IMG/VR virus record: IMGVR_UViG_3300023174_005350 | Location: 1-64,000 of that record | Strand: one strand, 5' to 3' | DNA from: a virus | Length of the DNA stretch: 64,000 nt | In this document: piece by piece, positions 1 through 33,128 of the stretch | Layout: each line of letters starts with the position of its first letter | Position numbering within the stretch: the stretch's first letter is position 1 | Notes under the pieces: model-generated | Told to the model about the DNA's origin: nothing | Seen by the model: the letters and a program-made list of their open reading frames with translations, nothing else | Databases searched by the model: none | Translations under genes and position numbers: made by a program

Positions 1-29
1 AGATTGACAATCTCCAGATTGACGAGTTG

Positions 30-58
30 TTGCGTTCCCTTCGCAGCTAGGATATAAT
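30..58 (+). promoter_or_regulatory. sigma70-like promoter, leaderless type
   Basis: TTGCGT (30-35), 17-nt spacer, TATAAT (53-58). The ATG at 66 lies 7 nt after the -10 hexamer, which is where transcription would start, so no Shine-Dalgarno leader is possible. Confidence 0.75.
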
Positions 59-65
59 AACCACC

Positions 66-263
66 ATGACCATCAACGTTAAGAATCGTGACACTGGCAA
101 GCTTGTTTACTGTGGCGATACCATTGTTGGAATCTATAACGAGCCGTGGATTTTTCTTGCTATGTCAAGCCCAATGACAGTGTGGGTTCGTGACCCGATT
201 ACTGGTGCGGTTGTTGACTTTGACCCGTCCACTATGGTAATCGACGTGGACGTGGTAGCCTAA
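66..263 (+). CDS. small protein of unknown function (65 aa)
   Basis: No family recognised. The 65-residue product has a beta-rich pattern (repeated V/I alternation, WIFLAM and VWVRDP segments) and ends in an acidic-hydrophobic VIDVDVVA tail; it has one cysteine and no zinc motif, unlike most neighbours. The ATG at 66 is chosen because a TATAAT lies just upstream at 53-58 and the start begins ATGACC, as in several other genes of this region. It is the first of the leaderless micro-genes and is followed by palindromic module A. Confidence 0.7.
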   Translation: MTINVKNRDTGKLVYCGDTIVGIYNEPWIFLAMSSPMTVWVRDPITGAVVDFDPSTMVIDVDVVA

Positions 264-290
264 CCTGTAGCCTTGGCACGGAGCTTGCAC

Positions 291-346
291 AGCCGCCGCG
301 CCGTAGGCGCGGCTGGCATTATATCATAATAAAAAATAAAAGCAAG
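291..346 (-). promoter_or_regulatory. palindromic module A with inward reverse promoter
   Basis: GC-rich palindrome: arms 295-302 and 306-313 (8 bp, loop GTA). It is followed by ATTATA at 318-323, which on the minus strand is TATAAT, with CTTGCT (plus 341-346) 17 nt upstream of it. The promoter points leftwards through the palindrome, antisense to the gene at 66-263. No convincing forward promoter abuts it. The preceding sequence AGCCTTGGCA..GAG.TTGCA is shared with module B. Confidence 0.65.
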
Positions 347-445
347 AGAAAAAAACTAATAATGTCCACCCACCCACGGGCAAACGGCGCATGTTAGTCC
401 ATCCAGCAACGGGAGTCAAGGACGAAAAAAAATGCATCCACCCTC

Positions 446-474
446 TTGCACGCACACGGAAGCGCGTCTATAAT
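446..474 (+). promoter_or_regulatory. sigma70-like promoter, leaderless type
   Basis: TTGCAC (446-451), 17-nt spacer, TATAAT (469-474), 6 nt, then ATG at 481. Confidence 0.75.
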
Positions 475-480
475 AAGGGC

Positions 481-666
481 ATGACCAACCAAACCTGCAA
501 CGGACGGCACACGAAGAACGATGGTTCCTACTGGGTGAACGATGCGCGTGGTATCCCGCTTGCCCGCGTCTGCACCAAGTGCGAGGATGCGAAGCTTGCA
601 AAGTATCGGAAGGACGTTCGCACGAACTCTAACTATTGGGCAGACGAGATTGTTGACGGCGACTAA
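481..666 (+). CDS. small basic Cys-containing protein (61 aa)
   Basis: Unrecognised 61-residue protein with a CTKC pair near residue 37 and another Cys near residue 6, rich in K, R and N; it could bind zinc or nucleic acid. The frame is open further upstream (to 391), but ATG 481 is preferred: it sits 6 nt after a TATAAT, begins ATGACC like its neighbours, and is the point where typical small-protein sequence begins (MTNQTC). The last codons contain the -35 of the promoter for the next gene. Confidence 0.7.
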   Translation: MTNQTCNGRHTKNDGSYWVNDARGIPLARVCTKCEDAKLAKYRKDVRTNSNYWADEIVDGD

Positions 667-682
667 GGTTCCAGCGTATAAT
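653..682 (+). promoter_or_regulatory. sigma70-like promoter with leader
   Basis: TTGACG (653-658), 18-nt spacer, TATAAT (677-682). TTCCAGCGTATAATAT (669-684) is identical to 2123-2138. Unlike most promoters here, it leaves a leader of about 33 nt before ATG 722. Confidence 0.75.
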
Positions 683-688
683 ATCCCG

Positions 689-703
689 GCAGTTAACCCG
701 TAG
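689..703 (+). repeat. conserved leader block, copy 1
   Basis: GCAGTTAACCCGTAG, identical in all 15 bases to 1699-1713. Both copies begin 6-7 nt after a TATAAT, at or next to the expected +1, and both are followed by an A-rich GAGAGAAAAAA stretch before the ATG. Confidence 0.75.
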
Positions 704-721
704 CACAAACGAGAGAAAAAA

Positions 722-1024
722 ATGATCATCTTCCGTCGCCTCATCCGTTCCAAGGGTTCTCAGTCCGCGAAGCTTGTCGGTGGACACCGTTTCGCGGTGA
801 ATGTTAAGACGCTGATCGCTCATGCAAAGCAGACCCGTCACGTCTACGCTTTCATTGACGAGAACGGCAACGAAGGGACCATTCGTTCCGGTGTCCTCAT
901 GCGGACGGTTGATAGCCACGTTCGCAACACCCTGACGGTTCAGGATGCGATCCAGCGTCCCTTGCCGTTTTCGGTTGACAACACTCCCGAGGTTGTGATT
1001 CGGAATGGTGTGATTGCAGCCTAG
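722..1024 (+). CDS. protein of unknown function (100 aa)
   Basis: Unrecognised 100-residue protein. Residues 20-60 look like alternating beta strands (FAVNVKTLIAHAK, HVYAFIDENG), with an Asn/Val-rich C-terminal half. It is one of two genes here preceded by a real untranslated leader rather than a leaderless start; the leader shares a 15-nt block with that of the gene at 1732, so the two may be co-regulated although the proteins show no obvious similarity. Its TAG stop is followed at once by the TTGACA of module B. Confidence 0.7.
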   Translation: MIIFRRLIRSKGSQSAKLVGGHRFAVNVKTLIAHAKQTRHVYAFIDENGNEGTIRSGVLMRTVDSHVRNTLTVQDAIQRPLPFSVDNTPEVVIRNGVIAA

Positions 1025-1139
1025 TTGACAACCCCTTGGCTCCCGTGCTAGAATAAGGCGGGAGCCTTGGCATAGAGGTTGCAGCCGCCCTTCGGGCGTC
1101 GGCTGGCACGATTATATCATGGGCAAAAGATAAAAGCAA
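1025..1139. promoter_or_regulatory. palindromic module B with opposed promoters
   Basis: Forward: TTGACA (1025-1030), 18 nt, TAGAAT (1049-1054). The -10 sits in the centre of an inverted repeat, GGCTCCCG (1038-1045) and CGGGAGCC (1059-1066). Then comes the palindrome AGCCGCCC (1083-1090)/GGGC...GGCT (1094-1104), and a reverse promoter: ATTATA (1111-1116), 17 nt, AAGCAA (1134-1139), i.e. TTGCTT-17-TATAAT on the minus strand. The start sites face each other about 43 bp apart. Confidence 0.65.
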
Positions 1140-1174
1140 CTAAAAAAAGAAAAAAAGAAAGTGGTTCCACCCCC

Positions 1175-1203
1175 TTGCAATCGTATGGGAGCGCGCATAT
1201 AAT
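1175..1203 (+). promoter_or_regulatory. sigma70-like promoter, leaderless type
   Basis: TTGCAA (1175-1180), 17 nt, TATAAT (1198-1203), 6 nt, ATG 1210. Confidence 0.75.
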
Positions 1204-1209
1204 ATCGCC

Positions 1210-1377
1210 ATGACCCAGACCGAGTTTCCCTTCCTGAGCAAGATCCGCACCTGCGAGGTTTGCAAGCACTCTTATGTTTCCGTGCTTGTCAACTGGGATC
1301 GTTGCGGAGTGTGCGAGGAAAACGTTAGGAAAGAAAATCTGAAATCAATACTTGCACGCTTCAACGTGAAGGAGTAG
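1210..1377 (+). CDS. zinc-ribbon microprotein (55 aa)
   Basis: 55 residues beginning MTQTEFPFLSKIRTCEVC. Two CxxC knuckles (C15-C18 and C32-C35) separated by 13 residues form a classical zinc-ribbon layout, followed by a basic helix. Function is unknown; such proteins often bind nucleic acid or RNA polymerase, but nothing here proves that. The stop codon TAG (1375-1377) is also the first half of the -10 (TAGAAT) of the next gene, and the -35 of that promoter lies inside this gene. Confidence 0.7.
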   Translation: MTQTEFPFLSKIRTCEVCKHSYVSVLVNWDRCGVCEENVRKENLKSILARFNVKE

Positions 1378-1380
1378 AAT
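1352..1380 (+). promoter_or_regulatory. sigma70-like promoter, leaderless type
   Basis: TTGCAC (1352-1357), 17 nt, TAGAAT (1375-1380), 7 nt, ATG 1388. The -10 overlaps the preceding stop codon. Confidence 0.7.
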
Positions 1381-1387
1381 AACCGCC

Positions 1388-1552
1388 ATGAACAAGCCAA
1401 AGCGAATCAAGATTGTTCTCCAGAAGAAGGCGTGCGTCAAGTGTCTGACGCAATGGCAGACTAGCAATAAGGATAGCAAGGTTTGCCCTTCGTGCGTCAA
1501 TGACCCTTCAACAATCCTCACGCGGTGCCTTGCAAACATTGTGAAGCTGTGA
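1388..1552 (+). CDS. zinc-ribbon microprotein (54 aa)
   Basis: 54 residues starting MNKPKRIKIVLQKKACVKC, with CVKC (16-19) and CPSC (33-36). It has the same two-knuckle layout and nearly the same length as the product of 1210-1377, so the two may be diverged duplicates. The N-terminus is strongly basic. The start has no Shine-Dalgarno and lies 7 nt after a -10 hexamer. Function unknown. Confidence 0.7.
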   Translation: MNKPKRIKIVLQKKACVKCLTQWQTSNKDSKVCPSCVNDPSTILTRCLANIVKL

Positions 1553-1558
1553 GAGAAT
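1530..1558 (+). promoter_or_regulatory. weaker sigma70-like promoter, leaderless type
   Basis: TTGCAA (1530-1535), 17 nt, GAGAAT (1553-1558), 5 nt, ATG 1564. The -10 departs from consensus at two positions; support comes mainly from the shared geometry. Confidence 0.5.
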
Positions 1559-1563
1559 AAGAC

Positions 1564-1683
1564 ATGATCAAAGCAAAGCGGGTTGGCGGTCTTTACTTCC
1601 TGTCCATCGGTCGTCTCCAGATTTCATTTTGTGTCAAGCGTAAGCCTAGCAAGAAAAAGATGTTGGTCCCTCCGCAGTTCTGA
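1564..1683 (+). CDS. basic microprotein (39 aa)
   Basis: 39 residues, MIKAKRVGGLYFLSIGRLQI..., with a hydrophobic middle and a Lys-rich tail (KRKPSKKKM). No family is recognised. It is accepted because it fits the chain of promoter-ATG units, its frame is closed tightly by neighbours on both sides, and its composition matches them. Its TGA is followed within 3 nt by the TATAAT of the next gene. Confidence 0.5.
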   Translation: MIKAKRVGGLYFLSIGRLQISFCVKRKPSKKKMLVPPQF

Positions 1684-1691
1684 TGTATAAT
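1663..1691 (+). promoter_or_regulatory. sigma70-like promoter with leader
   Basis: TTGGTC (1663-1668), 17 nt, TATAAT (1686-1691). It leads into the conserved leader of the gene at 1732. Confidence 0.6.
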
Positions 1692-1698
1692 AACCCTC

Positions 1699-1713
1699 GC
1701 AGTTAACCCGTAG
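1699..1713 (+). repeat. conserved leader block, copy 2
   Basis: GCAGTTAACCCGTAG, identical to 689-703 and in the same position relative to promoter and start codon. Confidence 0.75.
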
Positions 1714-1731
1714 AACGAAAGAGAAAAAACA

Positions 1732-1968
1732 ATGGCTACTTTCCTTGACGTGGCAGAGAAGCTTAACTCCTACAAGCGTTCCAACGGTCAGCGCGTGCTG
1801 TATGTGACCGATGCAGCGATTGTGCTTGACAGTCCGGTAGTGAGCGGTAACGAGGTTGCCGCCGTTATTGAGGGTCAGGTTTGCACGTTCACTCTCGGTG
1901 TCAACTGCTATCGTATGCTCCGCACGCGCCGTGTTGAGACTACTGAAACGTGGACGCTGGACGAGTAA
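1732..1968 (+). CDS. protein of unknown function (78 aa)
   Basis: 78 residues, MATFLDVAEKLNSYKRSNGQ..., with a helical start and beta-like remainder (VLYVTDAAIVLD, VAAVIEGQVCTFTLGV). Not recognised. It has a leader of about 35 nt shared in part with the gene at 722. Module C follows 11 nt after its stop; the reverse promoter of that module would produce RNA antisense to this gene. Confidence 0.7.
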   Translation: MATFLDVAEKLNSYKRSNGQRVLYVTDAAIVLDSPVVSGNEVAAVIEGQVCTFTLGVNCYRMLRTRRVETTETWTLDE

Positions 1969-1979
1969 GAAAATAAAGC

Positions 1980-2061
1980 TTGACAGCTTGCCGAGTCGGT
2001 GGCATAATAGCCGCCGATTTCGGCGGCTGCATATTATATCATAAGGAAAAGAATAAAGCAA
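1980..2061. promoter_or_regulatory. palindromic module C with face-to-face promoters
   Basis: Forward: TTGACA (1980-1985), 17 nt, CATAAT (2003-2008). Perfect palindrome AGCCGCCG (2009-2016), loop ATTT, CGGCGGCT (2021-2028). Reverse: ATTATA (2033-2038), 17 nt, AAGCAA (2056-2061), i.e. TTGCTT-17-TATAAT. The -10 hexamers are 24 bp apart, so both predicted start sites fall inside the palindrome. Confidence 0.75.
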
Positions 2062-2106
2062 TAAAGAAAAGCACGGGAAGATAAGAAAAAAAAGATGTGC
2101 AGGCTC

Positions 2107-2136
2107 TTGATTCCCGTAGAGATTCCAGCGTATAAT
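2107..2136 (+). promoter_or_regulatory. sigma70-like promoter, leaderless type
   Basis: TTGATT (2107-2112), 18 nt, TATAAT (2131-2136), 6 nt, ATG 2143. The 16 bases 2123-2138 are identical to 669-684. Confidence 0.7.
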
Positions 2137-2142
2137 ATGGGC

Positions 2143-2274
2143 ATGAACGAGAACAACAGCTGGTGCAAGGATTGCGGCACGGAGAAGAACCTTGTCATTT
2201 TCTCCGAGGCTCCGAAGGTTGTCCTTTGCACGGAGTGCGCCATGTGGCGTGACAGCAAGATTGACAAGCGGTAA
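2143..2274 (+). CDS. zinc-ribbon microprotein (43 aa)
   Basis: 43 residues, MNENNSWCKDCGTEKNLVIF..., with CKDC (8-11) and CTEC (29-32), a minimal two-knuckle zinc-binding layout. Function unknown. The start follows TATAAT by 6 nt. The -35 (TTGACA) for the next gene lies in its last codons. Confidence 0.7.
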   Translation: MNENNSWCKDCGTEKNLVIFSEAPKVVLCTECAMWRDSKIDKR

Positions 2275-2290
2275 AAGCGCAAGGTATAAT
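2261..2290 (+). promoter_or_regulatory. sigma70 promoter, consensus hexamers, leaderless type
   Basis: TTGACA (2261-2266), 18 nt, TATAAT (2285-2290), 6 nt, ATG 2297. Both hexamers are perfect. Confidence 0.8.
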
Positions 2291-2296
2291 ATCACC

Positions 2297-2527
2297 ATGA
2301 CCAACAACAACGGCGTCACCTTCTGCGATGTGTGCGACAACGAGTGCGAGCAGAGCGAGATCTCTGTGCGTGAGGACTTCAACGGTGAGTGCGAGGAAGT
2401 GTGCCGCACCTGCGTGGATCAGGAGAACATGACGGAGGATGAAGTGGACGAGATGAACATGTTGGAGGAGGAGTCTGACGCCGATGTGCGGGAAGATATC
2501 CTCGATATGTACTACAACGAATATTAG
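2297..2527 (+). CDS. acidic zinc-ribbon-like protein (76 aa)
   Basis: 76 residues, MTNNNGVTFCDVCDNECEQ..., with CDVC near residues 10-13, further Cys at 17 and 31, and CRTC near 36-39, then a very acidic tail (DEVDEMNMLEEESDADVRED). The acidic tail is like that of DNA-mimic or protein-inhibitor phage proteins, which is only a suggestion. The start is chosen by the promoter 6 nt upstream; the frame is open earlier. Its TAG stop runs directly into the TTGACA of module D. Confidence 0.7.
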   Translation: MTNNNGVTFCDVCDNECEQSEISVREDFNGECEEVCRTCVDQENMTEDEVDEMNMLEEESDADVREDILDMYYNEY

Positions 2528-2613
2528 TTGACAGGCGTTGGGGGGTTTGCTATACTAGCCCCCCGCGCCGTAGGCGCGGCTGGCATTATACCCCATGTGT
2601 AGTGGCGAGTCAA
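2528..2613. promoter_or_regulatory. palindromic module D with face-to-face promoters
   Basis: Forward: TTGACA (2528-2533), 17 nt, TATACT (2551-2556). Palindrome CCGCGCC (2563-2569), loop GTA, GGCGCGG (2573-2579). Reverse: ATTATA (2585-2590), 17 nt, AGTCAA (2608-2613), i.e. TTGACT-17-TATAAT. The -10 hexamers are 28 bp apart. Confidence 0.75.
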
Positions 2614-2648
2614 GCTAAAAGCGCAGCGTGGAAAAAATAAATAAATGC

Positions 2649-2677
2649 TTGCGTGTACCCCCGGTTCATGAGAGTAT
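2649..2677 (+). promoter_or_regulatory. weak sigma70-like promoter, leaderless type
   Basis: TTGCGT (2649-2654), 17 nt, GAGTAT (2672-2677), 6 nt, ATG 2684. The -10 is poor, but spacing matches the rest of the family. Confidence 0.45.
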
Positions 2678-2683
2678 GTGCGT

Positions 2684-3049
2684 ATGACCAACAACAACAT
2701 GACCATCGAGATCCGCGTGGGCGACGAGCTTCAGGAGATTGTTGTGTCCACCAAGTGGGAGATTTGCGAGCGTTGCGAGGGCAACGGCAAGCACGACCCT
2801 GAGTCGTTCTCCAACGGCTTTACCCAGAGCGAGTTCTATGAACTCTTCGACGATGAGGAGGAGCGCGAAAACTATTTCAATGGCAAGCACGATGTTGCGT
2901 GCCGCGAGTGCAACGCCTCGGGCAAGGTGCGCGTGCCTGACCTTAGCTCTCTCACGGACGAGGAGCGCGAGGGCTACGAGCGTGCGCTGGAGGACCGTGC
3001 CGACTACGAGCGGGAGTGCCGCTACGAGCGCCGGTACCTCGGGTACTAG
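2684..3049 (+). CDS. DnaJ-type zinc-finger-like protein (121 aa)
   Basis: 121 residues. CERCEGNGKH (C28, C31) and CRECNASGKV (C73, C76) are CxxCxGxG-like repeats as in the cysteine-rich region of DnaJ, but the J domain and the other two repeats are missing. The C-terminal half is a long charged helix rich in E, R and Y. A GTG at 2678 is also in frame; ATG 2684 is preferred because it starts MTNNN, exactly like the gene at 2297, and keeps the 6-nt distance to the -10. Partner and role unknown. Confidence 0.7.
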   Translation: MTNNNMTIEIRVGDELQEIVVSTKWEICERCEGNGKHDPESFSNGFTQSEFYELFDDEEERENYFNGKHDVACRECNASGKVRVPDLSSLTDEEREGYERALEDRADYERECRYERRYLGY

Positions 3050-3109
3050 TTGCCCCTGTCAAGGGGGTGGTGGTTGGCTAAATAAAAAAAATAAAAGCCT
3101 CCCACCCCC

Positions 3110-3205
3110 TTGACGAATATCCACAGGTATGGTAAACTAGCCGCCTCGTTCCTCGGCGGGAGGCTGGGACACCTATATTATATCACGGGTGGATAGGTAG
3201 CGCAA
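3110..3205. promoter_or_regulatory. palindromic module E with face-to-face promoters
   Basis: Forward: TTGACG (3110-3115), 17 nt, TAAACT (3133-3138). Palindrome CCGCC (3141-3145)/GGCGG (3155-3159), with flanking AGCC/GGCT. Reverse: ATTATA (3177-3182), 17 nt, GCGCAA (3200-3205), i.e. TTGCGC-17-TATAAT. The -10 hexamers are 38 bp apart. Confidence 0.65.
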
Positions 3206-3230
3206 GAAATAAAAAAAGATATTCCACCAC

Positions 3231-3260
3231 TTGCCCACCACCATCCTATCAAGGTAAGCT
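3231..3260 (+). promoter_or_regulatory. probable sigma70-like promoter
   Basis: TTGCCC (3231-3236), 18 nt, TAAGCT (3255-3260), followed by a leader with ATAGGAG before ATG 3282. Confidence 0.45.
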
Positions 3261-3281
3261 AGACACATAGGAGAAAAGATT

Positions 3282-3692
3282 ATGGCGAGCAAAGACTACG
3301 AGAAGAACGATAAGTATTATGCAAAGCTTGAGCAACAGATTGAACAGGTTGCACTTATCATGCATAGGCTTAACAACATGTGGAGCTTCACAGGTTCCCA
3401 GCTGTCCTATGCCTGTGACAACTACATGCGTCCCCGTGACCTTGCCACACTAGAGGAGCGTGTGCATTGCTTGGTGCAGGCTTATGCTGCGCTAACAAAG
3501 AGTGTCACCTTGTATACATCTCAGGGATATGTCCTGCCAGCTTTCTGGGATAGTACGTTTGGCAAGCTAGGACAAGATATAATCTTTACCTTGCCTGAGA
3601 TGCTGCATGTCAAAAAAGAAAAAGCCTTCTATAAAAATTTGATAAAGACCTTCACCCTTGCGTGGGGGGAGTCCCCCTCCCTCCCCCTGTAA
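3282..3692 (+). CDS. helical protein of unknown function (136 aa)
   Basis: 136 residues, mostly helical, with aromatic and basic residues; no recognised domain. It differs from the preceding genes in having a conventional leader with AGGAG 8-12 nt before the ATG. It is the last gene of the GC-rich block; base composition drops sharply after it. Confidence 0.7.
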   Translation: MASKDYEKNDKYYAKLEQQIEQVALIMHRLNNMWSFTGSQLSYACDNYMRPRDLATLEERVHCLVQAYAALTKSVTLYTSQGYVLPAFWDSTFGKLGQDIIFTLPEMLHVKKEKAFYKNLIKTFTLAWGESPSLPL

Positions 3693-3726
3693 CGTCCATG
3701 GACCAGAAATATAAGTCTCTATGCTC

Positions 3727-23547: not shown

Positions 23548-24321
23548 ATGTCTAATCATATATCTTTTTCTGCTTTAAAAATTTGGAATGATTGTCCTTT
23601 TAAGTATAAGTTAATTTATGTAGATAACGTTCAGAAATTTCGTGGTAGTGAACACACGGCTTTTGGAACTGCTCTCCATGAAGCTTGTGAAAAAAAACTG
23701 TTAGATAATAACATAAATGAAGTTGAATGTTTTAGCTCTAAGTTTGAAGAAGAACTAAATAAAATTCCTTCTGATATAACAGTAGATAATAAACTAATAA
23801 CTGAGATGAAAGAGCAGGGAAAACTGCTATCTACGATGGCGCTGCCCGCTCTTAAGGAAAAGTTTGGTAACTTTAAAGTATTATCTGCCGAAGAAGATAT
23901 TCTTGAAGCAATCAATAAGATCCCAGAACTAAGTTATAATTTTAAAGGATACATCGATTTAATTCTTCAAACTGAAGATGGGAAAATCCATATTCTAGAT
24001 TGGAAAACGTGTGCATGGGGTTGGGATGCAAAAAAGAAAAGCGATCCAATGATTACATATCAGCTTACCTTTTATAAGTATTTCTATGCTCAAAAGCATA
24101 AGATAGATCCAAAAAATATTGAAACATATTTTGCTCTCCTTAAGCGTACAGTAAAAAAAGACAATGTAGAAATATTTCGTGTAACTAGCGGAGATAAAAA
24201 AACAGAAAATGCATTTAACTTATTAACAAAAGCACTTTATAGTATTAATAAGAATTTTTTTCCAAAGAATCGCTTAAGTTGTAAATATTGCGAATTCAAT
24301 AATACAAAGGAATGCCCATGA
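23548..24321 (+). CDS. PD-(D/E)xK nuclease, Cas4/RecB-like (257 aa)
   Basis: N-terminal SFSALKIWNDCPFKYKL, FGTALHEACE, then the catalytic part GYIDLIL...HILDWKT and a Q/Y motif (YQLTFYKYF). The C-terminus has CKYCEFNNTKECP; with the N-terminal Cys this matches the four-cysteine iron-sulfur layout of Cas4/AddB nucleases. It probably trims DNA ends in recombination or replication. Driven by an ideal promoter. Confidence 0.8.
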   Translation: MSNHISFSALKIWNDCPFKYKLIYVDNVQKFRGSEHTAFGTALHEACEKKLLDNNINEVECFSSKFEEELNKIPSDITVDNKLITEMKEQGKLLSTMALPALKEKFGNFKVLSAEEDILEAINKIPELSYNFKGYIDLILQTEDGKIHILDWKTCAWGWDAKKKSDPMITYQLTFYKYFYAQKHKIDPKNIETYFALLKRTVKKDNVEIFRVTSGDKKTENAFNLLTKALYSINKNFFPKNRLSCKYCEFNNTKECP

Positions 24322-25298
24322 AAACAGCAGTCGTAACAGGAGTTACAGGACAAGATGGAAGTTATCTTGCTGAATTATTATTAGAAAAAGATTATAAGGT
24401 AATTGGTTTAGTTCGCAGAAGTGCAATGGAAGATAAAAAGTTTTATAACATAAGCCATCTTCTACAGAATCCTAATCTAATTTTAGAAAATGGAGATTTG
24501 ACCGACTCACCATCTTTATGGAGAGTCATAAAACAGTACAAGCCAGATGAATTTTATAATCTTGCTGCACAAAGTCACGTAGGCGCTTCTTTTACATCCC
24601 CCGAAAGCACTTTAGAAATAAATGCTACCGGGGTTTTAAATTGTCTAGAAGCGATTCGTAATCTAAAGCCAGATACAAAGTTTTATCAAGCGTCTACTAG
24701 CGAGATGTTTGGAGATAATATGAACGCACCACAGAACGAAGAAACAGTTTTATCTCCTGTTTCTCCTTATGCTTGTGCAAAAGTTTATGCACATAATTTG
24801 GTTATTAACTATCGCAAAGCTTATGACTTGTTTGCGTGTTCTGGTATTCTTTTCAATCATGAATCTCCCCGGCGTGGAGAACAGTTTGTAACACGGAAAA
24901 TTACCAAAGCAGCTGCTAGAATTAAGCTTGGTCTTCAAAATGAACTAAGGCTTGGTAATTTAGAAGCCAAACGCGATTGGGGATATGCAAAAGAATATGT
25001 AGAAGGAATGTGGATGATGATGCAATATCACACCCCGGATGATTACGTTCTGGGCACAGGCGTAACACATACAATAAGTGAATTTATTACTTGCATATCT
25101 GATATTGCTGGTTATAATTTATTTAATCATGTAGTTATTGATGATAAATTCAAACGTCCTAGTGAAGTTCCTTTATTGCTAGCAAATCCTTCAAAAGCAA
25201 AAAGAGTATTAGGATGGCAACCAAAAACAGATTTAAAACAACTAGCAGAATTAATGTATAATTCTGATCTAGAAAAGGAAAAAAATAATGTCAAATAA
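24318..25298 (+). CDS. gmd: GDP-mannose 4,6-dehydratase (326 aa)
   Basis: NAD(P)-dependent short-chain fold: TGVTGQDGSYLAELL, YNLAAQSHVGASF, FYQASTSEMFG, SPYACAKVYAH (YxxxK), FNHESPRRGEQFVTRKI, LGNLEAKRDWGYAKEYV. These blocks are specific for Gmd, which converts GDP-mannose to GDP-4-keto-6-deoxymannose. ATG 24318 is preferred over ATG 24312 because AAAGGA ends at 24311, giving correct spacing. Opens the sugar cluster. Confidence 0.9.
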   Translation: MKTAVVTGVTGQDGSYLAELLLEKDYKVIGLVRRSAMEDKKFYNISHLLQNPNLILENGDLTDSPSLWRVIKQYKPDEFYNLAAQSHVGASFTSPESTLEINATGVLNCLEAIRNLKPDTKFYQASTSEMFGDNMNAPQNEETVLSPVSPYACAKVYAHNLVINYRKAYDLFACSGILFNHESPRRGEQFVTRKITKAAARIKLGLQNELRLGNLEAKRDWGYAKEYVEGMWMMMQYHTPDDYVLGTGVTHTISEFITCISDIAGYNLFNHVVIDDKFKRPSEVPLLLANPSKAKRVLGWQPKTDLKQLAELMYNSDLEKEKNNVK

Positions 25299-25314
25299 AG
25301 TAGTTTGAGTTCCC

Positions 25315-25340
25315 ACGCTGCTAATTATAAGCGTAGGAGG
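25315..25340 (+). promoter_or_regulatory. hairpin next to SD of the HNH gene
   Basis: ACGCT (25315-25319) and AGCGT (25330-25334) form a stem followed directly by AGGAGG (25335-25340). Confidence 0.35.
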
Positions 25341-25348
25341 ACAAACAA

Positions 25349-25987
25349 ATGATTAAAAATTGCATTATTTGTGAAAAACAATTTGAAGCAGCAAGCTGGG
25401 CAACAAAAAGTTGCTCCAAACAATGTAGATTAAAGCATAATAATAGTCGTAGAAAGAAAACAAATCTAAATCATTTAGATACATTTAACTGTAAAGAATG
25501 CGGTATAGAAGTTACAAGATATAGAATACGTAGCGGTTTTTGTTCTCGTTCTTGTGCATCAAAAAAATATATAGCTGATGGTACTTTTAATCAATGGAAA
25601 AAGTATATTCCTAAGAAAAGAACAGCAGAAGAAGAAGTAAATCTTAAATTAAGAAAAGGTGTTTCTAAGCTAATAAGGTTTTATTTATTTAAACAATTAA
25701 TACCAAAAACTTCTTCTACTTGGAAAAACCTACCGTATACGCCAAAAGATTTAAAAGAGCATCTAGAAAAACAATTTGATGATAATATGTCTTGGAATAA
25801 TTATGGAAAATATTGGACTATAGATCACATAATTCCGCAATCAAAGCTTTTGTTTAAAGATTTTAACGATGAAAACTTTTTAAAATGTTGGCGTTTAGAA
25901 AATTTAAGACCATTAGAAAAAATTGCTAATATAAAGAAAAGTAACAAAATTATAGGAGAAACAAATGGAACAGAAAAAGAAAATTAA
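25349..25987 (+). CDS. HNH homing-type endonuclease (212 aa)
   Basis: Two zinc-knuckle segments (CIICEKQF, CKECGIEV...CSRSCASK), then a helical linker and HNH-like core: PKDLKEHLEKQFDDNMSW, YWTIDHIIPQSKL, LENLRPLEKIANIKKSNK. It interrupts the sugar cluster between gmd and a glycosyltransferase, in the same orientation, with its own SD; overlaps the next start by 23 nt. A mobile free-standing endonuclease is the best explanation. Confidence 0.8.
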   Translation: MIKNCIICEKQFEAASWATKSCSKQCRLKHNNSRRKKTNLNHLDTFNCKECGIEVTRYRIRSGFCSRSCASKKYIADGTFNQWKKYIPKKRTAEEEVNLKLRKGVSKLIRFYLFKQLIPKTSSTWKNLPYTPKDLKEHLEKQFDDNMSWNNYGKYWTIDHIIPQSKLLFKDFNDENFLKCWRLENLRPLEKIANIKKSNKIIGETNGTEKEN

Positions 25988-27209
25988 GATTTTGACTCTA
26001 GGGGATCATCCTCTCTCACCATCTGGCGTAGGTAGTCAATGCAACTACATTTTCCAAGGGCTGTTAAAGACAGGAAAATATCAAATTATTTCTCTTGGTG
26101 GAGCTATCAAGCATCAAGATTATCGTCCAACTAAATTCCATGAATATGGAGATGATTTTGTTATTATTCCAGTTGATGGCTATGGAACTCCAGAACTAAT
26201 ACGTAATCTTTTAATGAAAGAAAAGCCAGATATCCTTTGGATGATGACCGATCCACGCTTCTACACTTGGCTTTGGAATATTGAACAAGAAATTCGTCCA
26301 AATATTCCAATTGTGTATTATCACGTATGGGACAACTATCCATATCCAAAGTTTAATCGTTCGTACTATTTATCAAATGATAAAATTGCTACTATTTCCA
26401 AGCTTACGAGCGATATAGTACGTGTAGTAGCACCAGAAGTAGAAGAAGAGTATGTTCCTCACGCAGTAAGTCCTGAATTGTTTAAAATTCTTGATGAAAA
26501 GGAATTTGCTCATTTACGCATTAAAGATAAAACTCTATTCTTCTGGACTAATCGCAATGCTCGTAGAAAGATGAGTGGAAGTGTTGTTTGGTGGTATAAA
26601 GAATTCCTAGATAAAGTAGGACACGATAAAGCATTTCTTTTGATGCATACTGATCCTAAAGATGTGCATGGTCAAGACTTGATTGCCATTGCAGAAGAAT
26701 TAGGTCTTACAAAAGATAATTTTGCCATTTCTCCCGGTAAAGTACCAGCAGCGGATATGGCAAAGTTTTATAATGCCGCAGATTGTACTATTAATATTAG
26801 TGATGCAGAAGGCTTCGGGCTTTCATGCTTAGAAAGCCTATCCTGTGGAACACCAGTTATAGCAAATAAAACTGGCGGCATGCAAGATCAATTAACTGAT
26901 GGCGTAGATACATTCGGCGTATTGATTGAACCAGCAAGCCGCGCAGTAATCGGTTCACAAGAAGTGCCATATATTTATGAAGATCGCGTTAGCAATACAG
27001 ACGTTGTGAATGCGATGATAAAGATTCATAATATGACCCGCGAAGAACGTAAGGCGCTTGGTAAAAAAGGTTATGATAATGTCCAAAAGAACTTTAACTT
27101 TCAAACATTCCAAGAGACTTGGGATAAACTATTCAGTGGCGTTCATGAAAAATTTGGTTCTTGGGAAACACGTAAAGGCTACAAATCTTGGAGCGTAAAG
27201 GAATTCTAA
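25965..27209 (+). CDS. GT-B glycosyltransferase, GT4-like (414 aa)
   Basis: N-terminal LGDHPLSPSGVGSQCNYI, C-terminal donor-binding block DAEGFGLSCLESLSCGTPVIANKTGG, with the E-x7-E motif of GT4 retaining enzymes. Transfers sugar from a nucleotide donor to an unknown acceptor, in the cytoplasm. First of three related GT-B genes in a row. Confidence 0.85.
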   Translation: MEQKKKIKILTLGDHPLSPSGVGSQCNYIFQGLLKTGKYQIISLGGAIKHQDYRPTKFHEYGDDFVIIPVDGYGTPELIRNLLMKEKPDILWMMTDPRFYTWLWNIEQEIRPNIPIVYYHVWDNYPYPKFNRSYYLSNDKIATISKLTSDIVRVVAPEVEEEYVPHAVSPELFKILDEKEFAHLRIKDKTLFFWTNRNARRKMSGSVVWWYKEFLDKVGHDKAFLLMHTDPKDVHGQDLIAIAEELGLTKDNFAISPGKVPAADMAKFYNAADCTINISDAEGFGLSCLESLSCGTPVIANKTGGMQDQLTDGVDTFGVLIEPASRAVIGSQEVPYIYEDRVSNTDVVNAMIKIHNMTREERKALGKKGYDNVQKNFNFQTFQETWDKLFSGVHEKFGSWETRKGYKSWSVKEF

Positions 27210-27210
27210 A

Positions 27211-28437
27211 ATGAAAAAAATATTAATCAGCGGTCCAGTATTGAGCAGAAGCGGCTATGGTGAAATGGCACGTTTCGCATTACGCTCATTATCAAAACAA
27301 AATGTAGATTTATATGTATTACCTACTGCTTGGGGAAATACTGGATGGCTTCATGAATACAATGATGAAAGAAAATATATCGATTCTTTAATTTCTAAAA
27401 CACAAATTTATATTCAACAAAACAATGGACAACCTAAATTTGATGTTTCTGTGCAAGTGAGCCTGCCAACAGAATGGAAAAAAATGGCACTAATCAATAT
27501 TGGGTATACAGCCGGAATCGAAACTAATATTATTTCTCCAGCTTGGCTTGAACCATCACAACTAATGGACAAAATAATTGTCATAAGCAATCACGCTAAA
27601 GCAGGTTTTATAAATACAGTTTTTGGTGATCAAACAGGTCAGCAATATAGAGTAAAAACACCCGTAGAAGTAGTACATCTTCCTTATAGAAACGTAGAAA
27701 AGAAAGATTTAGATTTGCAATTAAAGTATGATTTTAACTTTTTATCTGTATGTCAATGGGGTCCAAGAAAGAATCTTGATCAAACAATCATTGGATTTCT
27801 AGAAGAATTTCGTAATGAAGAAGTTGGTTTAGTATTAAAAATTAATACTTCTAATGATTCTACTATGGATAGAAGTCTAACTCAAAAAAGATTAGAAAAT
27901 CTTTTAAGTAACTATCCAAATAGAAAATGCTCTATAACACTTCTACACGGTCATTTAAGCGATGGAGAGGTGGAATCACTATACACGCATCCAAAAATCA
28001 AGGCAATCGTTTCTACAACCCACGGTGAGGGCTTTGGGCTGCCATTACTAGAAGCAGCTGTTAATGTATTACCCGTAATAGCTACAGATTGGAGCGGACA
28101 TACAGATTTCCTATATCTACCAGAAAATGAAGAAAAAAAGCGTATGTTTGGTAAAATTGATTATGATTTAAAGCCAATTGAAGCTATTCATGTTTGGAAG
28201 GGTGTTTTGGAAGAAGGAACACAATGGGCTTATCCAAAGATGGTTAGTTATAAGGATAGATTACGTGATTGTTACAAAGATTGGGGACGTTATAAATCAC
28301 AAGCCAAAAAGCTATCACCTTGGATAAAAGAAAATTTTTCACAAGAAAAATTATTTTCTAAATTTACCGATAATTGTATTTTAAAAAATGAATATGATGA
28401 TATTATAAATAAATATGAAAATATGGATAAGATATAA
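27211..28437 (+). CDS. GT-B glycosyltransferase (408 aa)
   Basis: SGPVLSRSGYGEMARFALRSL at the N-terminus, FLSVCQWGPRKNLDQTI in the donor domain, and HGEGFGLPLLEAAVNVLPVIATDWSG. Same family as its neighbours but not closely similar, so it probably has a different donor or acceptor. Starts 2 nt after the previous gene. Confidence 0.85.
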   Translation: MKKILISGPVLSRSGYGEMARFALRSLSKQNVDLYVLPTAWGNTGWLHEYNDERKYIDSLISKTQIYIQQNNGQPKFDVSVQVSLPTEWKKMALINIGYTAGIETNIISPAWLEPSQLMDKIIVISNHAKAGFINTVFGDQTGQQYRVKTPVEVVHLPYRNVEKKDLDLQLKYDFNFLSVCQWGPRKNLDQTIIGFLEEFRNEEVGLVLKINTSNDSTMDRSLTQKRLENLLSNYPNRKCSITLLHGHLSDGEVESLYTHPKIKAIVSTTHGEGFGLPLLEAAVNVLPVIATDWSGHTDFLYLPENEEKKRMFGKIDYDLKPIEAIHVWKGVLEEGTQWAYPKMVSYKDRLRDCYKDWGRYKSQAKKLSPWIKENFSQEKLFSKFTDNCILKNEYDDIINKYENMDKI

Positions 28438-29612
28438 TGAAAATAGTATATATTGGACAATTTAATGATGCATGCGGTTATGCAAATGCGGCAAGAAAAT
28501 ATTTAAAGATTTTTGATAAAGACAAATATTTTAAAGAAAATCTCATTCTTGTAAGTGTTAATGCAGAAAAGAAAAATTATGCTTCTAAAGAAGAAACGGA
28601 TTTAATAAATAAATATCTTGTCAAAGATCCAGCATTGTTTAATGAATTAATTAATTCTGGGGAATACATTGTTTTAGTTCATTTTTTGCCTAATATAGCA
28701 ACAGACCCAGTAGTAAAACAAATTATAGAAAAGTCTAAAAAGAGCTTTAATATTGTTTATTGGGAAACAGATGCGCTTCCTAAACAATGGATAGAATTAT
28801 ATAAATCTAAAATATATGATGAAATAATTGTTAATTCAAAATGGAATCAAGAAATATTTAGCAGAGATGCCGGATTAAAAACTAATTTAACATATCTGCC
28901 ATATACGAAAAAAGAATTACAATTTAGTCACGGAGACAAATTTACTATCTTTGCCATGTCTCAATGGGTATTTAGAAAAGGCTTTGATATCCTTATAAAA
29001 GCATATACACAAGAATTTTTCCATAACACAGATACGCAGCTTTTAATTAAAACATATCGCTTTGAAACTACCTCAAGAGACTCAGAGGAAAATGAAAGGG
29101 CAATTATTTTAAAAGAAGCATCAGAATATAAAAAAAGTATTTATGATTATGGTAAAAATTCTGATACATCAATTTATATTATCACTGGTCATATAAGTGA
29201 CGAGAGAATACAAGATTTATATTCTAAATCAAATATATTTTGTTCTACAGCCAGATCAGAAGGGTTTGGAATGACTTTGGCCGATGCTTGTTCATATGGT
29301 ATTCCAATAGTCGCACTAAATACAACTGGTCATATAGATTTTATAGATCCAAAAAATTCTTTTCTTTATAATGGGCATCTAGTTCCAATCAGCAATCAAG
29401 GTTTTCATTTAAATTCTTTAAATATGAATTTTTATGAACCGGATATTTTATCTGTTAGAAAACAACTTAGAATATGTTATAATATTTGGAAAGAAGATAG
29501 AAATAAATTACTAGAAATTGGAAAAAACAATAGACATTATTCACTTTCTATTTTAAATGAAACAAATATTATAAATGATTTTATAAATATTTTAGGATTA
29601 AAAAATGAATAA
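28437..29612 (+). CDS. GT-B glycosyltransferase (391 aa)
   Basis: YIGQFNDACGYANAARKYL, FAMSQWVFRKGFDILIKAY and RSEGFGMTLADACSYGIPIVALNTTG. The second Glu of E-x7-E is replaced (ADACSYG), so activity or donor handling may differ. TAATG coupling to the previous gene. Confidence 0.8.
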   Translation: MKIVYIGQFNDACGYANAARKYLKIFDKDKYFKENLILVSVNAEKKNYASKEETDLINKYLVKDPALFNELINSGEYIVLVHFLPNIATDPVVKQIIEKSKKSFNIVYWETDALPKQWIELYKSKIYDEIIVNSKWNQEIFSRDAGLKTNLTYLPYTKKELQFSHGDKFTIFAMSQWVFRKGFDILIKAYTQEFFHNTDTQLLIKTYRFETTSRDSEENERAIILKEASEYKKSIYDYGKNSDTSIYIITGHISDERIQDLYSKSNIFCSTARSEGFGMTLADACSYGIPIVALNTTGHIDFIDPKNSFLYNGHLVPISNQGFHLNSLNMNFYEPDILSVRKQLRICYNIWKEDRNKLLEIGKNNRHYSLSILNETNIINDFINILGLKNE

Positions 29613-30372
29613 AAAGATTACTTTCTGCACGTATGTATCAGATGATAAAATAACTTATTTTGGACTTTTAAAAATGTTAGCATCTTTTAAAAAATTCCAT
29701 CCAGATATTCCTATATATGTTTTAACTAATAAACATATCAATGCAGAACTTAAAAAATTACCAATGTTTAATAATTTTTATTATTTAAATCCAGTAATGT
29801 CCAATCTGTTAACCTCAAAATATGAAACAGTAGTTCATATTGATGCTGACTGTATAGTTACAGATAGATTAGACGAAATATTACAATGCGATTACGACGT
29901 TGCAGTTGTCAGAAATAATAGCGATAAACAAACTGCTGGAATGGGTCGGCCAGAAACTGCCGATGGAAAAGTAGACGTGTATAAATATATTAATTGCGGT
30001 TTAATAGCGTCAACAAAAAAACAATTTTGGGAAGAATGGATTTATAGAAACATAAAATTACAAAATAAATATAGACAGCACGAACAAGATATTGTAAATT
30101 TAATGCTAGCTGAAGGAAGATATAAAGTAAAAATATTAGATTCTATAAATACTAATCTTTATTATGGTGTTGCTAATGCTTACGGGACAAAATCTCATTG
30201 GGATAGTTGGAAAGAAATAACACTTGAAAAAGATAATAAACTTTATTTAAATAATAAATTAATTAAAGTTTTACATCATGCCGGTGGATTTGTCCAAGAA
30301 AAATTAAATATTGAAGAATTATTTTCACCTGAAGTGTCGGCACATTTAAAAGAATTGTGTGAGGATTTATAA
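29605..30372 (+). CDS. GT-A glycosyltransferase, GT8-like (255 aa)
   Basis: GT-A fold with DxD-type motif in VVHIDADCIVTDRLDEI (about residues 88-104) and a C-terminal HHAGG block typical of GT8-like enzymes. Uses a nucleotide-sugar and metal. Overlaps the preceding gene by 8 nt. Confidence 0.75.
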   Translation: MNKKITFCTYVSDDKITYFGLLKMLASFKKFHPDIPIYVLTNKHINAELKKLPMFNNFYYLNPVMSNLLTSKYETVVHIDADCIVTDRLDEILQCDYDVAVVRNNSDKQTAGMGRPETADGKVDVYKYINCGLIASTKKQFWEEWIYRNIKLQNKYRQHEQDIVNLMLAEGRYKVKILDSINTNLYYGVANAYGTKSHWDSWKEITLEKDNKLYLNNKLIKVLHHAGGFVQEKLNIEELFSPEVSAHLKELCEDL

Positions 30373-30373
30373 A

Positions 30374-31066
30374 ATGTCAAAAAATATTAATTTTTATTCT
30401 TGGGAAAAACAAGATGAATTTGCTTATAACTTAATAGGCGAAAACGGATTTTTTTTAGATTTAGGATGTAGCAGTCCAACGGATGGTAGTAATACGTATG
30501 GTTTAGAAAAGCTTGGTTGGAGAGGTATTTGTTTTGATATAAGAAATTGCGAAGCTGAATATGGCTGGAGCAATATCCGAAAAGAAAAATTTGTTCAAGC
30601 GGATGTAACATCAGATTATTTTTTAAATTTTATCGCTAATATAAAAAATGAAATTCCTGTTGTAGATTATATATCCTTAGATATGGATACAGCAGGACAG
30701 AATTTCGCTTTATTTGGTCTTAACAATATTCTTAAATCTGATATTAAATTTAAATGCTTAACTTTTGAGCACGAATTTCATTATTATGGAGAAAGAAATA
30801 AACTAGAAGGAAAAAGAATGCTTGAAAAAGCAGGATATTTTTGTCTTTTTGATGATGTAGTACTGGTTCAAGATGCTATTCCGCCTTCAAATTATCCCGG
30901 TAAATATTTTGAAGATTGGTATATAAATCCAGAGTTTTTTGATAAATCGATTATTGATTTGGCAACTTCTAAAAAAGATTATAATCTTTGTATTGATTTA
31001 TTAAAAAATTATTTTAATAGGAGTTATACTGCAAATTATATAAATTGCAAAGGCGTACAAAGATGA
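30374..31066 (+). CDS. FkbM-like methyltransferase (230 aa)
   Basis: SAM-binding motif FFLDLGCSSPTDGSNT, then GWRGICFDIR, VDYISLDMDTAG. The layout is that of FkbM-type O-methyltransferases, which often methylate sugars. The frame extends upstream to a GTG (30359), but ATG 30374 directly after the previous stop is preferred. ATGA overlap with the next gene. Confidence 0.75.
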   Translation: MSKNINFYSWEKQDEFAYNLIGENGFFLDLGCSSPTDGSNTYGLEKLGWRGICFDIRNCEAEYGWSNIRKEKFVQADVTSDYFLNFIANIKNEIPVVDYISLDMDTAGQNFALFGLNNILKSDIKFKCLTFEHEFHYYGERNKLEGKRMLEKAGYFCLFDDVVLVQDAIPPSNYPGKYFEDWYINPEFFDKSIIDLATSKKDYNLCIDLLKNYFNRSYTANYINCKGVQR

Positions 31067-32019
31067 AAAAAATTGTTTATATAACTGGATGTTTGGGATT
31101 TATTGGCTCACATCTTACAAGAAAATGTTTGGATCTTGGTTGGTTTGTTAAAGGCATTGATAAAGTTACCTATGCGGCTAATTTACATGCTTTAGAAGAG
31201 TTTAAAAAATATAAAAACTTTTCTTTTGAGCAAAAAGATATTAATGATTTACATTTTTTGTATGATTGTGATTATGTTATCAATACTGCCGCTGAAACAC
31301 ACGTTGATAATTCCATAGTTGACAATAAGGATTTTCTAAAAAGCAACATCGATGGCGTACACAATCTATTAGAATTAATAAAAAATAATAGAAATAATAA
31401 TAAGCCAATTTTTTTACACTTTAGTACTGACGAAGTATATGGCGATATTGATTTTGGATCACATAATGAACTTTCACTTTTAAAGCCAAGCAATCCTTAT
31501 TCAGCTACAAAAGCAGCAGCTGATATGATGATTCTTGCTTGGGCAAGAACATATGATATTAAATATGTAATCGTAAGGCCATCTAATAATTATGGCATTG
31601 GTCAATATGTAGAAAAACTAATTCCTAAAACTTGTAAATATCTTTTCTTAGGTAGAAAAATTCCTTTACATAATAACGGTACTCCAATAAGAACTTGGCT
31701 TCATGCCGATGATACAGCAGAAGCTTGCATTAAAATAATTAATAGTGGCAAAACAAACGAAATATATAATATATGCGGCTCAGAAGAAAAAACTAATATT
31801 GATACTATAAAATCTATAATCAAAGAATATTTTAATTTTAAAGATAAAGAATATGATATCAACAATTATGTTGATATGTCTTATACCAGAAAAGGGCAAG
31901 ATGTTAGATATTCTGTTGAAGATAAAAAATTAAGACAATTAGGTTGGAAAAATACTAAAAAATTTGATGAAGAAATAAAGTCAATAGTAGAGTACTATAA
32001 GGATAATTTTATATGGTAG
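31063..32019 (+). CDS. nucleotide-sugar 4,6-dehydratase, RmlB-like (318 aa)
   Basis: Extended SDR: TGCLGFIGSHL (NAD site), AAETHVDNSI, STDEVYGD (T-D-E active-site motif), PYSATKAAADM (YxxxK), RPSNNYGIGQ, RKGQDVRYSVEDKKLRQLGW. These motifs match dTDP-glucose 4,6-dehydratases; the true nucleotide could be another. The product would be an NDP-4-keto-6-deoxyhexose. Start at ATG 31063, overlapping the upstream stop. Confidence 0.85.
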   Translation: MKKIVYITGCLGFIGSHLTRKCLDLGWFVKGIDKVTYAANLHALEEFKKYKNFSFEQKDINDLHFLYDCDYVINTAAETHVDNSIVDNKDFLKSNIDGVHNLLELIKNNRNNNKPIFLHFSTDEVYGDIDFGSHNELSLLKPSNPYSATKAAADMMILAWARTYDIKYVIVRPSNNYGIGQYVEKLIPKTCKYLFLGRKIPLHNNGTPIRTWLHADDTAEACIKIINSGKTNEIYNICGSEEKTNIDTIKSIIKEYFNFKDKEYDINNYVDMSYTRKGQDVRYSVEDKKLRQLGWKNTKKFDEEIKSIVEYYKDNFIW

Positions 32020-32648
32020 ATAAAAAACTAAAGAAAAGACTTTTAGAAATTTGCTACAATCATAAACTTCATCACTTGGGTAGTTATTTTTCTTCATTAA
32101 ATATTATTGATGAAATTTATTCTGAAATGAAAAAAGATGATATTTTCATTCTTTCTTCTGGTCATGCTGTTGTGGCACTATTTGTAGTTTTAGAAAAATA
32201 TTATGGATTCAATGCAGAAGAATTATTGAAAAAACACGGCGAGCATCCTAAATTAGATGAAGAGCATAAAATCTTTTGTTCTACTGGAAGCCTTGGTTTA
32301 GGATTACTAGTGGCAGTTGGTCGTGCGGTCGCAAATAAAAATAGAAACGTTTATTGTTTGATTTCTGATGGTGAGACAGCCGAAGGAAGTATATGGGAAG
32401 CTTTAAGATATGCCAAAGAATCCAAATTAGATAATTTAAAAGTTTTCGTGAACGCGAATGGCATTTGTGGTTATGATACCGTAAATGTTGATTATTTAGA
32501 AAAAAGAATTAAAGCATTTGATGAAAAAATAAATTTTGTTATTACTACTGTAGAACAAATTCCCGCTCTTAAAGGCATAGAATCTCATTATTGCACATTG
32601 AGCGAAAAAGATTATTTACACGGGTTAGAATATATAAATAGAGAATAA
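32013..32648 (+). CDS. transketolase-like TPP enzyme, N-terminal subunit (211 aa)
   Basis: Thiamine-diphosphate binding half: HHLGSYFSSLNIIDEIY, SSGHAVVALF, ISDGETAEGSIWEAL (GDG-like motif) and FVNANGICGYD. About 60 residues shorter than usual N-terminal subunits. Together with the next gene it should form one TPP active site that moves a two-carbon unit. Confidence 0.8.
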   Translation: MVDKKLKKRLLEICYNHKLHHLGSYFSSLNIIDEIYSEMKKDDIFILSSGHAVVALFVVLEKYYGFNAEELLKKHGEHPKLDEEHKIFCSTGSLGLGLLVAVGRAVANKNRNVYCLISDGETAEGSIWEALRYAKESKLDNLKVFVNANGICGYDTVNVDYLEKRIKAFDEKINFVITTVEQIPALKGIESHYCTLSEKDYLHGLEYINRE

Positions 32649-32651
32649 AAA

Positions 32652-33128
32652 ATGAGAAAAACTTTTGCTACTTTATTACATGAAGAAATGAAAGAAAATA
32701 AAGATATTTATTTGCTTACCGGCGATTTAGGATTTAGACTTTGGGATAATATTAAAAATGATTTTCCTAATAACTATATTAATCCCGGTTCCGCTGAACA
32801 ACTATTGATTGGTATGGCAACTGGATTAGCGTTAGAAGGTAAAATACCTGTTGTGTATTCTATAACTCCTTTTCTTATCTATAGACCGTTTGAAATTATA
32901 AGAAATTATATGCATTACGAAAAGATACCTGTAAAGTTAATTGGCGGTGGCCGTGGAAGAGATTATGGCGTTTTAGGATACACTCATTGGGCCGAAGAAG
33001 ATGAAAAAATTATTGATATATTAAATAACATAAAGCAATATAGACCAGAAAAAAATGAAGATGTAAATTCTTCTTTTAAAGACTTTCTATATTCTAAACA
33101 ACCATGCTATATGAATTTAAAAAAATAA
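32652..33128 (+). CDS. transketolase-like TPP enzyme, C-terminal subunit (158 aa)
   Basis: Pyrimidine-binding domain: YLLTGDLGFRLWDNI, NPGSAEQLLIGMATGLALEG (with catalytic-type E), PVVYSITPFLIYRPFEII. It stops after this domain; the third transketolase domain (about 120 residues) is missing, which suggests a reduced enzyme. Starts 3 nt after its partner. Confidence 0.8.
   Translation: MRKTFATLLHEEMKENKDIYLLTGDLGFRLWDNIKNDFPNNYINPGSAEQLLIGMATGLALEGKIPVVYSITPFLIYRPFEIIRNYMHYEKIPVKLIGGGRGRDYGVLGYTHWAEEDEKIIDILNNIKQYRPEKNEDVNSSFKDFLYSKQPCYMNLKK

What the first reader, a model, noticed from the sequence alone, without database searches (positions are those of the whole stretch)
1980..3205. Palindromes between face-to-face promoters
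Modules C, D and E (and with wider spacing B) have a near-consensus promoter on each strand, both with 17-nt spacers (18 for the forward one in B), pointing at each other with a GC palindrome between the -10 hexamers (24, 28, 38 and 56 bp apart). Predicted start sites fall in or at the palindrome, so the two open complexes should exclude each other. Module A has only the reverse promoter. This could be an on/off switch, an antisense source for upstream micro-genes, an RNA-polymerase trap, or a cruciform site for replication. I know of no described element with this build.
Basis: partly seen in the sequence, partly recalled or inferred. Interest (0 to 1): 0.85.

Follow-up and report, generated by a model that had tools for sequence, protein, structure and literature searches.

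The report
Opposed-promoter hairpin cassettes of a phage
Between groups of small early genes, a family of freshwater phages carries dozens of short DNA cassettes in which a promoter fires backwards, through an RNA hairpin, into the end of the preceding genes, often against a second promoter facing it; this may be an unusual way to end or restrain transcription by making polymerases meet head-on.

Summary
"Near-consensus" is overstated for three reverse -35 boxes (TTGCTT, TTGCTT, TTGCGC), which are extended -10 (TGnTATAAT) promoters. I found five further related islands, one of them sequenced twice. The constant core is the leftward, antisense promoter followed at once by a hairpin: 28 of 38 minus-strand promoters in six islands, 0 of 64 promoters in the rest of the window, shuffles 0.17. 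A facing forward promoter is present in 20 of 25 modules of the G000/G005/G015/G018 group and in 0 of 7 in G006/G016. In the B class both promoters stay invariant while the palindromes change. The forward -10 also lies in the loop of a second hairpin whose arms covary (64/64 cells paired). Modules lack a U-tract, sit at the ends of gene groups and mark breakpoints of gene shuffling. Best reading: transcription-boundary cassettes that use an opposing promoter and hairpin(s) to stop or restrain rightward transcription by head-on collision or antisense, related in role to T4-type PeSLs but inverted in build. The function is inferred; no RNA data exist.

The parts
290..345 (-). Module A: GC hairpin (about 290-316), leftward promoter -10 TATAAT 318-323 (extended TGA) and -35 TTGCTT 340-345, spacer 16; no forward partner
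   Evidence: orthologues in G005 and G015
1025..1139 (.). Module B: forward promoter TTGACA 1025-1030 / TAGAAT 1049-1054; hairpin 2 arms GGCTCCCG 1038-1045 and CGGGAGCC 1059-1066 around the forward -10; hairpin 1 1082-1105; leftward -10 1111-1116, -35 TTGCTT 1134-1139
1980..2061 (.). Module C: forward TTGACA 1980-1985 / CATAAT 2003-2008; hairpin 2 TCGGTGGC 1996-2003 with GCCGCCGA 2010-2017; alternative hairpin 1 2009-2028; leftward -10 2033-2038, -35 TTGCTT 2056-2061
2528..2613 (.). Module D: forward TTGACA 2528-2533 / TATACT 2551-2556; hairpin 2 arms 2540-2547 and 2557-2564; hairpin 1 about 2557-2584; leftward -10 2585-2590, -35 TTGACT 2608-2613
3110..3205 (.). Module E: forward TTGACG 3110-3115 / TAAACT 3133-3138; hairpin about 3139-3165; leftward -10 3177-3182, -35 TTGCGC 3200-3205
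   Evidence: hairpin stem replaced but pairing kept in G005
3058..3114 (.). Perfect 13-bp inverted repeat GTCAAGGGGGTGG / CCACCCCCTTGAC whose right arm contains the forward -35 of module E
   Evidence: I11; the right arm and most of the left arm are kept in G015
364..385 (-). Leftward intrinsic-terminator-like hairpin plus T tract just upstream (minus strand) of the module A leftward promoter
1155..1176 (-). Leftward terminator-like hairpin plus T tract upstream of the module B leftward promoter
1..3700 (+). About 50% GC island of small rightward genes (e.g. 66-263, 481-666, 722-1024, 1732-1968, 2684-3049, 3282-3692), many with their own strong promoter; the modules lie between gene groups

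Best explanation
The modules are transcription-boundary cassettes placed at the ends of groups of small early genes in a hypervariable island of a T4-related phage. Each has a leftward host-type (sigma-70) promoter that needs to express no gene. It fires, through a GC hairpin encoded by the first ~30 transcribed bases, against RNA polymerase coming out of the gene group. Head-on meeting of the polymerases, positioned or paused by the hairpin(s), ends or restrains rightward transcription without a classical U-tract. In most modules of this clade a forward promoter faces the leftward one; it would load a second polymerase, block the leftward one from running far into the upstream genes, and add rightward transcription. 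Shown by sequence: the promoters, the hairpins, their conservation and covariation, their place at gene-group ends, the absence of U-tracts, and gene shuffling around them. Inferred: that the promoters fire, that collision or antisense is the effect, and that termination results.
For: The leftward promoter plus immediate hairpin is the constant part: 28/38 minus-strand island promoters against 0/64 in the rest of the window and 0.17 in shuffles; 32 curated modules in six islands. Hexamers are invariant while spacers and palindromes diverge. The forward -10 sits in a hairpin loop in face-to-face modules (14 promoters, mean z 2.1) but not at 63 other island promoters (mean z -0.18); arms pair in 64/64 cells with two-sided changes, and 1 of 720 arm permutations does as well. 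No rightward T-tract (0 of 33) has a qualifying hairpin in the islands, so boundaries need another means. Next gene groups have their own promoters about 36-100 bp beyond the module, so neither module promoter is required to express a gene. In G006/G016 rightward promoters carry spacer hairpins plus T tracts that read as leftward terminators (7 against about 0.3 expected), as expected if leftward transcripts are real. Head-on RNAP collision with a hairpin that positions bidirectional termination is demonstrated for E. coli RNA polymerase (PMC13082048).
Against: No transcript data. Hairpin 1 followed by AUUAUAU could itself be a weak rightward terminator (flags module C, modules F and C of G005). 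The role of the forward promoter is not explained cleanly; it is missing in 12 of 32 modules. In close promoter pairs collision is expected to be reduced (PMC6593788). Leftward terminators next to modules are only modestly enriched (17/32 against 25% in shuffles).
Confidence: 0.4

Rival explanations
1. Antisense-RNA units: the leftward promoters make long, 5'-hairpin-stabilised antisense RNAs that pair with and damp or time the early mRNAs of each gene group; collision is incidental.
For: Leftward RNA would begin with a terminal stem-loop, a known stabiliser (own knowledge). In G006 leftward promoters at L095 5147, 6601 and 7717 are each followed further left by a leftward terminator-like site at a sense promoter (4381, 5575, 7217), so each unit would span one gene group.
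Against: The sequence downstream of the hairpin is not conserved outside type-I modules, and the forward promoter and second hairpin are then unexplained.
Confidence: 0.25
2. PeSL-like cassette: hairpin 1 is a (weak) rightward terminator for the upstream genes and the module is mainly a homology seed for gene shuffling; the leftward promoter is secondary.
For: Gene order differs between G015 and G018 with block ends at modules, and G005 has an extra gene plus module relative to the window. A 33-nt stretch is shared at 94% with the distant G006. Some hairpins are followed by AUUAUAU.
Against: G006/G016 hairpins are followed by AUUCUACC in most cases, not a U-tract. A TTGAC-17-TA[GT]AAT leftward promoter in 7/7 of those modules is not a by-product. 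In RB49, where PeSLs were defined, 43 of 44 strong promoters in the 50 kb scanned are sense and the clear terminator hairpins lie upstream of the promoter.
Confidence: 0.17
3. DNA-level structure: the palindromes extrude as cruciforms (origin, recombination or promoter melting), with the promoter hexamers held in loops.
For: Covariation of arms fits DNA as well as RNA; the forward -10 lies in a loop.
Against: All 3 non-Watson-Crick cells in the covarying arms are G-T on the + strand and none is A-C; plus-strand RNA folds are on average 1.7 kcal/mol better, a weak hint at RNA. No origin hallmark was seen.
Confidence: 0.07
4. On/off switch or polymerase sink: the paired promoters hold one polymerase at a time, as a bistable switch or to titrate host polymerase.
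For: Footprints must overlap (gaps 24-56 bp); islands hold many more promoters than chance (31 against 8.3).
Against: 12 of 32 modules have no forward partner, and no regulator or asymmetric output gene is seen.
Confidence: 0.06

Closest known systems
PeSL (promoter early stem-loop) cassettes of T4-type phages (Arbiol 2010, Comeau 2014; originals not held, cited through PMC4503421)
   Same: Strong sigma-70-like promoter plus stem-loop between small genes of a hypervariable region; associated with gene gain, loss and shuffling.
   Different: In RB49 the promoters are sense and the clear U-tract terminator hairpins lie upstream of them. Here the constant promoter is antisense, the hairpin lies downstream of it, there is no U-tract, and many modules have a facing partner.
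Collision-dependent bidirectional terminators of convergent genes in E. coli (ynaJ-uspE; cited in PMC13082048)
   Same: Head-on polymerases with an RNA hairpin between them that positions termination.
   Different: There two genes converge; here a dedicated non-coding promoter would supply the opposing polymerase within 24-56 bp of a facing one or at the end of a single gene group.
Convergent promoter pairs of temperate phages (186 pR/pE, lambda PR/PRE)
   Same: Face-to-face sigma-70 promoters with transcriptional interference.
   Different: 186 and lambda pairs are 320-340 bp apart and control a lysis decision (PMC6593788). Here many repeated units with 24-56 bp gaps, each with a hairpin between.

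Membership tests
PeSL cassette | Lies between small genes of a hyperplastic region of a T4-type phage | tested here: met
   Island of small ORFs with different GC; absent or replaced in relatives with 94-96% PhoH identity. T4-type assignment is tentative: gp55-like sigma E 4e-4, gp6-like baseplate E 7e-19.
PeSL cassette | Sense early promoter preceded by a U-tract terminator stem-loop | tested here: not met
   Promoter adjoining the hairpin is antisense; hairpin is downstream of it; no U-tract. RB49 control shows the other order.
PeSL cassette | Mediates modular shuffling of genes | tested here: inconclusive
   Block ends coincide with modules in G015/G018 and window/G005; no statistical test or crossover evidence.
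Collision-dependent bidirectional terminator | Opposed transcription across a hairpin | tested here: inconclusive
   Opposed promoter sequences and hairpins found; transcription itself not observed.
Collision-dependent bidirectional terminator | RNA 3' ends made by collision | not testable with these tools
   No RNA data available.
Canonical intrinsic terminator (rightward) | GC hairpin followed directly by a U-tract | tested here: not met
   0 of 33 rightward T-tracts in islands have a qualifying hairpin; hairpins 1 are followed by AUUAUA/AUUCUA. A looser scan flags three.

The most novel reading that the evidence does not exclude
A phage-encoded class of compact, U-tract-free transcription boundary in which a dedicated antisense promoter launches a polymerase through a covarying hairpin against the outgoing one, with the facing forward promoter's -10 set in the loop of a second hairpin; repeated many times per genome and exchanged as a cassette.
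Probability: 0.3. Interest if true: 0.8.

Novelty: new variant of a known kind. Interest (0 to 1): 0.58.

Why it matters
If the modules work as proposed, they would be a natural, highly repeated use of programmed polymerase collisions as gene boundaries, in elements under 120 bp that could be moved into a reporter directly. They would also extend the PeSL idea (regulatory cassettes that let phages shuffle accessory genes) to an inverted, antisense build in uncultured freshwater phages.

Tried and rejected
Phage DNA searches (near, distant) gave no match. Rfam at E<=1 gave only chance-level hits. Pattern scans of viral contigs: most CAGCC...GGCTGG hits lacked a -35 and were dropped as chance; L100-L102 have the promoter pattern but no hairpin, or not in this context. 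Leftward small ORF starting [A/G]TGCCAA in type-I modules: rejected by inspection, because a 1-nt indel in the loop shifts its frame between window B and G018 B (alignment). Host identification through GDP-mannose dehydratase gave only 47% matches to Pelagibacteraceae, so the host is unknown. Spacer hairpins as a general feature of all gene promoters: not seen in the window clade (mean z about 0-0.3), only in G006/G016 (1.1, 0.7). Original PeSL papers could not be read.

Full report
What was checked. The window is the first 64 kb of a 75-kb uncultured virus record. Bases 1-3700 form an island of about 50% GC against about 31% for the rest, filled with small rightward genes, many with a strong promoter a few bases before the start codon. 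The phage is tentatively T4-related: a gp55-like late sigma factor (E 4e-4) and a gp6-like baseplate protein (E 7e-19). The host is unknown.

The observation. The reverse -35 boxes of A, B, C and E match the consensus at only 3 of 6 bases (TTGCTT or TTGCGC), but these promoters carry TGATATAAT, an extended -10, and T-rich DNA upstream. D is near-consensus on both strands.

Relatives. G005 (same left end, 89% and 85% identical blocks) and G015 (about 73%) hold orthologous islands. G018/G019, two near-identical records, hold seven more modules. The more distant G006 and G016 hold three and four modules of a second type. G001 and G003, whose PhoH is 96% and 94% identical to the window's, have no such module in the island regions examined, so the module is a property of the exchangeable island, not of the core genome.

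What is constant. In six islands 38 minus-strand promoters were found; 28 are followed within 32 nt by a hairpin of -10 kcal/mol or better. Shuffled islands give 3.9 promoters and 0.17 with a hairpin; the rest of the window 0 of 64; DNA around phoH of relatives 8 of 684. The curated set is 32 modules. Counting by hand, a facing forward promoter is present in 4/5 (window), 4/6 (G005), 6/7 (G015) and 6/7 (G018), and in 0/7 of G006/G016. So the leftward promoter plus hairpin is the core, and the facing pair is a variant of one clade.

Conservation. In six B-class modules the invariant columns are TAGTTGACA (stop codon plus -35), TGCTAGAATA (extended -10), TTGGCA, GTTGCA and ATTATATCA (the minus -10), while the palindrome bases differ. 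In D the two hexamer pairs persist though spacers and palindrome are rewritten and the gap nearly doubles between the window and G005. In E the hairpin stem of G005 is new sequence that still pairs.

A second hairpin, not in the finding. The forward -10 of face-to-face modules lies in the loop of another inverted repeat: 14 promoters have mean z 2.1 and 8 have p<0.05, against mean z -0.18 and 2 of 63 for other forward promoters of the islands. In eight B-class modules the arms pair in 64 of 64 cells (61 Watson-Crick, 3 G-T), most of the eight pair positions show changes on both sides, and only 1 of 720 permutations of arms among six non-redundant modules does as well. Some of these modules are orthologues or paralogues, so the number is not a probability. 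Because the arms change sequence but keep pairing, they are structure rather than a fixed protein site.

Context. Each module ends a gene group: in B and D the forward -35 starts at the base after the stop codon. The next gene group has its own promoter about 36-100 bp beyond the module. So neither module promoter is needed to express a gene. By a strict scan no rightward intrinsic terminator exists in any island (0 hairpins before 33 T-tracts), whereas in G006/G016 seven leftward T-tracts, all at rightward promoters, have a hairpin (about 0.3 expected). There the spacer palindromes of gene promoters double as leftward terminators, which suggests that leftward transcripts exist and need ending. 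Leftward terminators next to the modules themselves are only modestly enriched (17/32 against 25%).

Mechanism. Convergent polymerases are known to terminate by head-on collision, positioned by nascent-RNA hairpins (PMC13082048), and interference between convergent promoters is established (PMC6593788). A leftward promoter with a hairpin at the end of a gene group, with no U-tract and nothing to express, fits a collision-type boundary best (0.4). Antisense control is close behind (0.25). These two share most predictions and are separated by the cis/trans and mutant tests listed.

Relation to known kinds. The nearest kind is the PeSL of T4-type phages. As a control, in 50 kb of RB49, 43 of 44 strong promoters are sense and the clear terminator hairpins lie upstream of the promoters. 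The present modules have the reverse order and orientation, so they are not filed as PeSLs, though they may play the same part in gene shuffling: block ends between G015 and G018, and the extra gene plus module of G005, fall at modules.

Limits. No RNA data; promoter calls rest on the consensus of a different host; island boundaries were chosen by GC; modules within a genome are paralogous; several counts rest on manual curation of 32 modules.

Noticed in passing
window 1-60 and L094 1-60: The window's record and G005 begin at exactly the same base although they are separate assemblies (75 kb and 119 kb); this could be a physical genome end or a shared assembly break.
   Followed up: no
window 689-724 and 1699-1734: A 36-nt leader GCAGTTAACCCGTAG...ATG is shared (86%) by two genes of the island and recurs in G005, G015 and G018; possibly a common 5' UTR element.
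   Followed up: no
L095 2317, 4361, 5555, 7199, 7939 and L142 1964, 6657, 10637: Spacers of rightward gene promoters in G006/G016 contain palindromes which, with the A-tract upstream of the -35, read on the other strand as intrinsic terminators: a promoter that doubles as a terminator for the opposite strand.
   Followed up: partly
L097 2000-7060 (G003): The island of a relative with 94% identical PhoH uses different intergenic elements: repeated GTGTCAC...GTGACAC palindromes and short GGGG/CCCC hairpins with T-runs.
   Followed up: partly
window 267-289, 1063-1083; L120 12103 and 12879: Type-I modules share TTGGCATRGRGRTTGCA between forward promoter and hairpin; role unknown.
   Followed up: partly
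window 24312-35272: Cluster of sugar-nucleotide and glycosyltransferase genes (GDP-mannose dehydratase, three glycosyltransferases, DegT aminotransferase).
   Followed up: no
record position 69001-70500 (L002): A second stretch of raised GC (0.47 and 0.41) in the 75-kb record, not examined.
   Followed up: no
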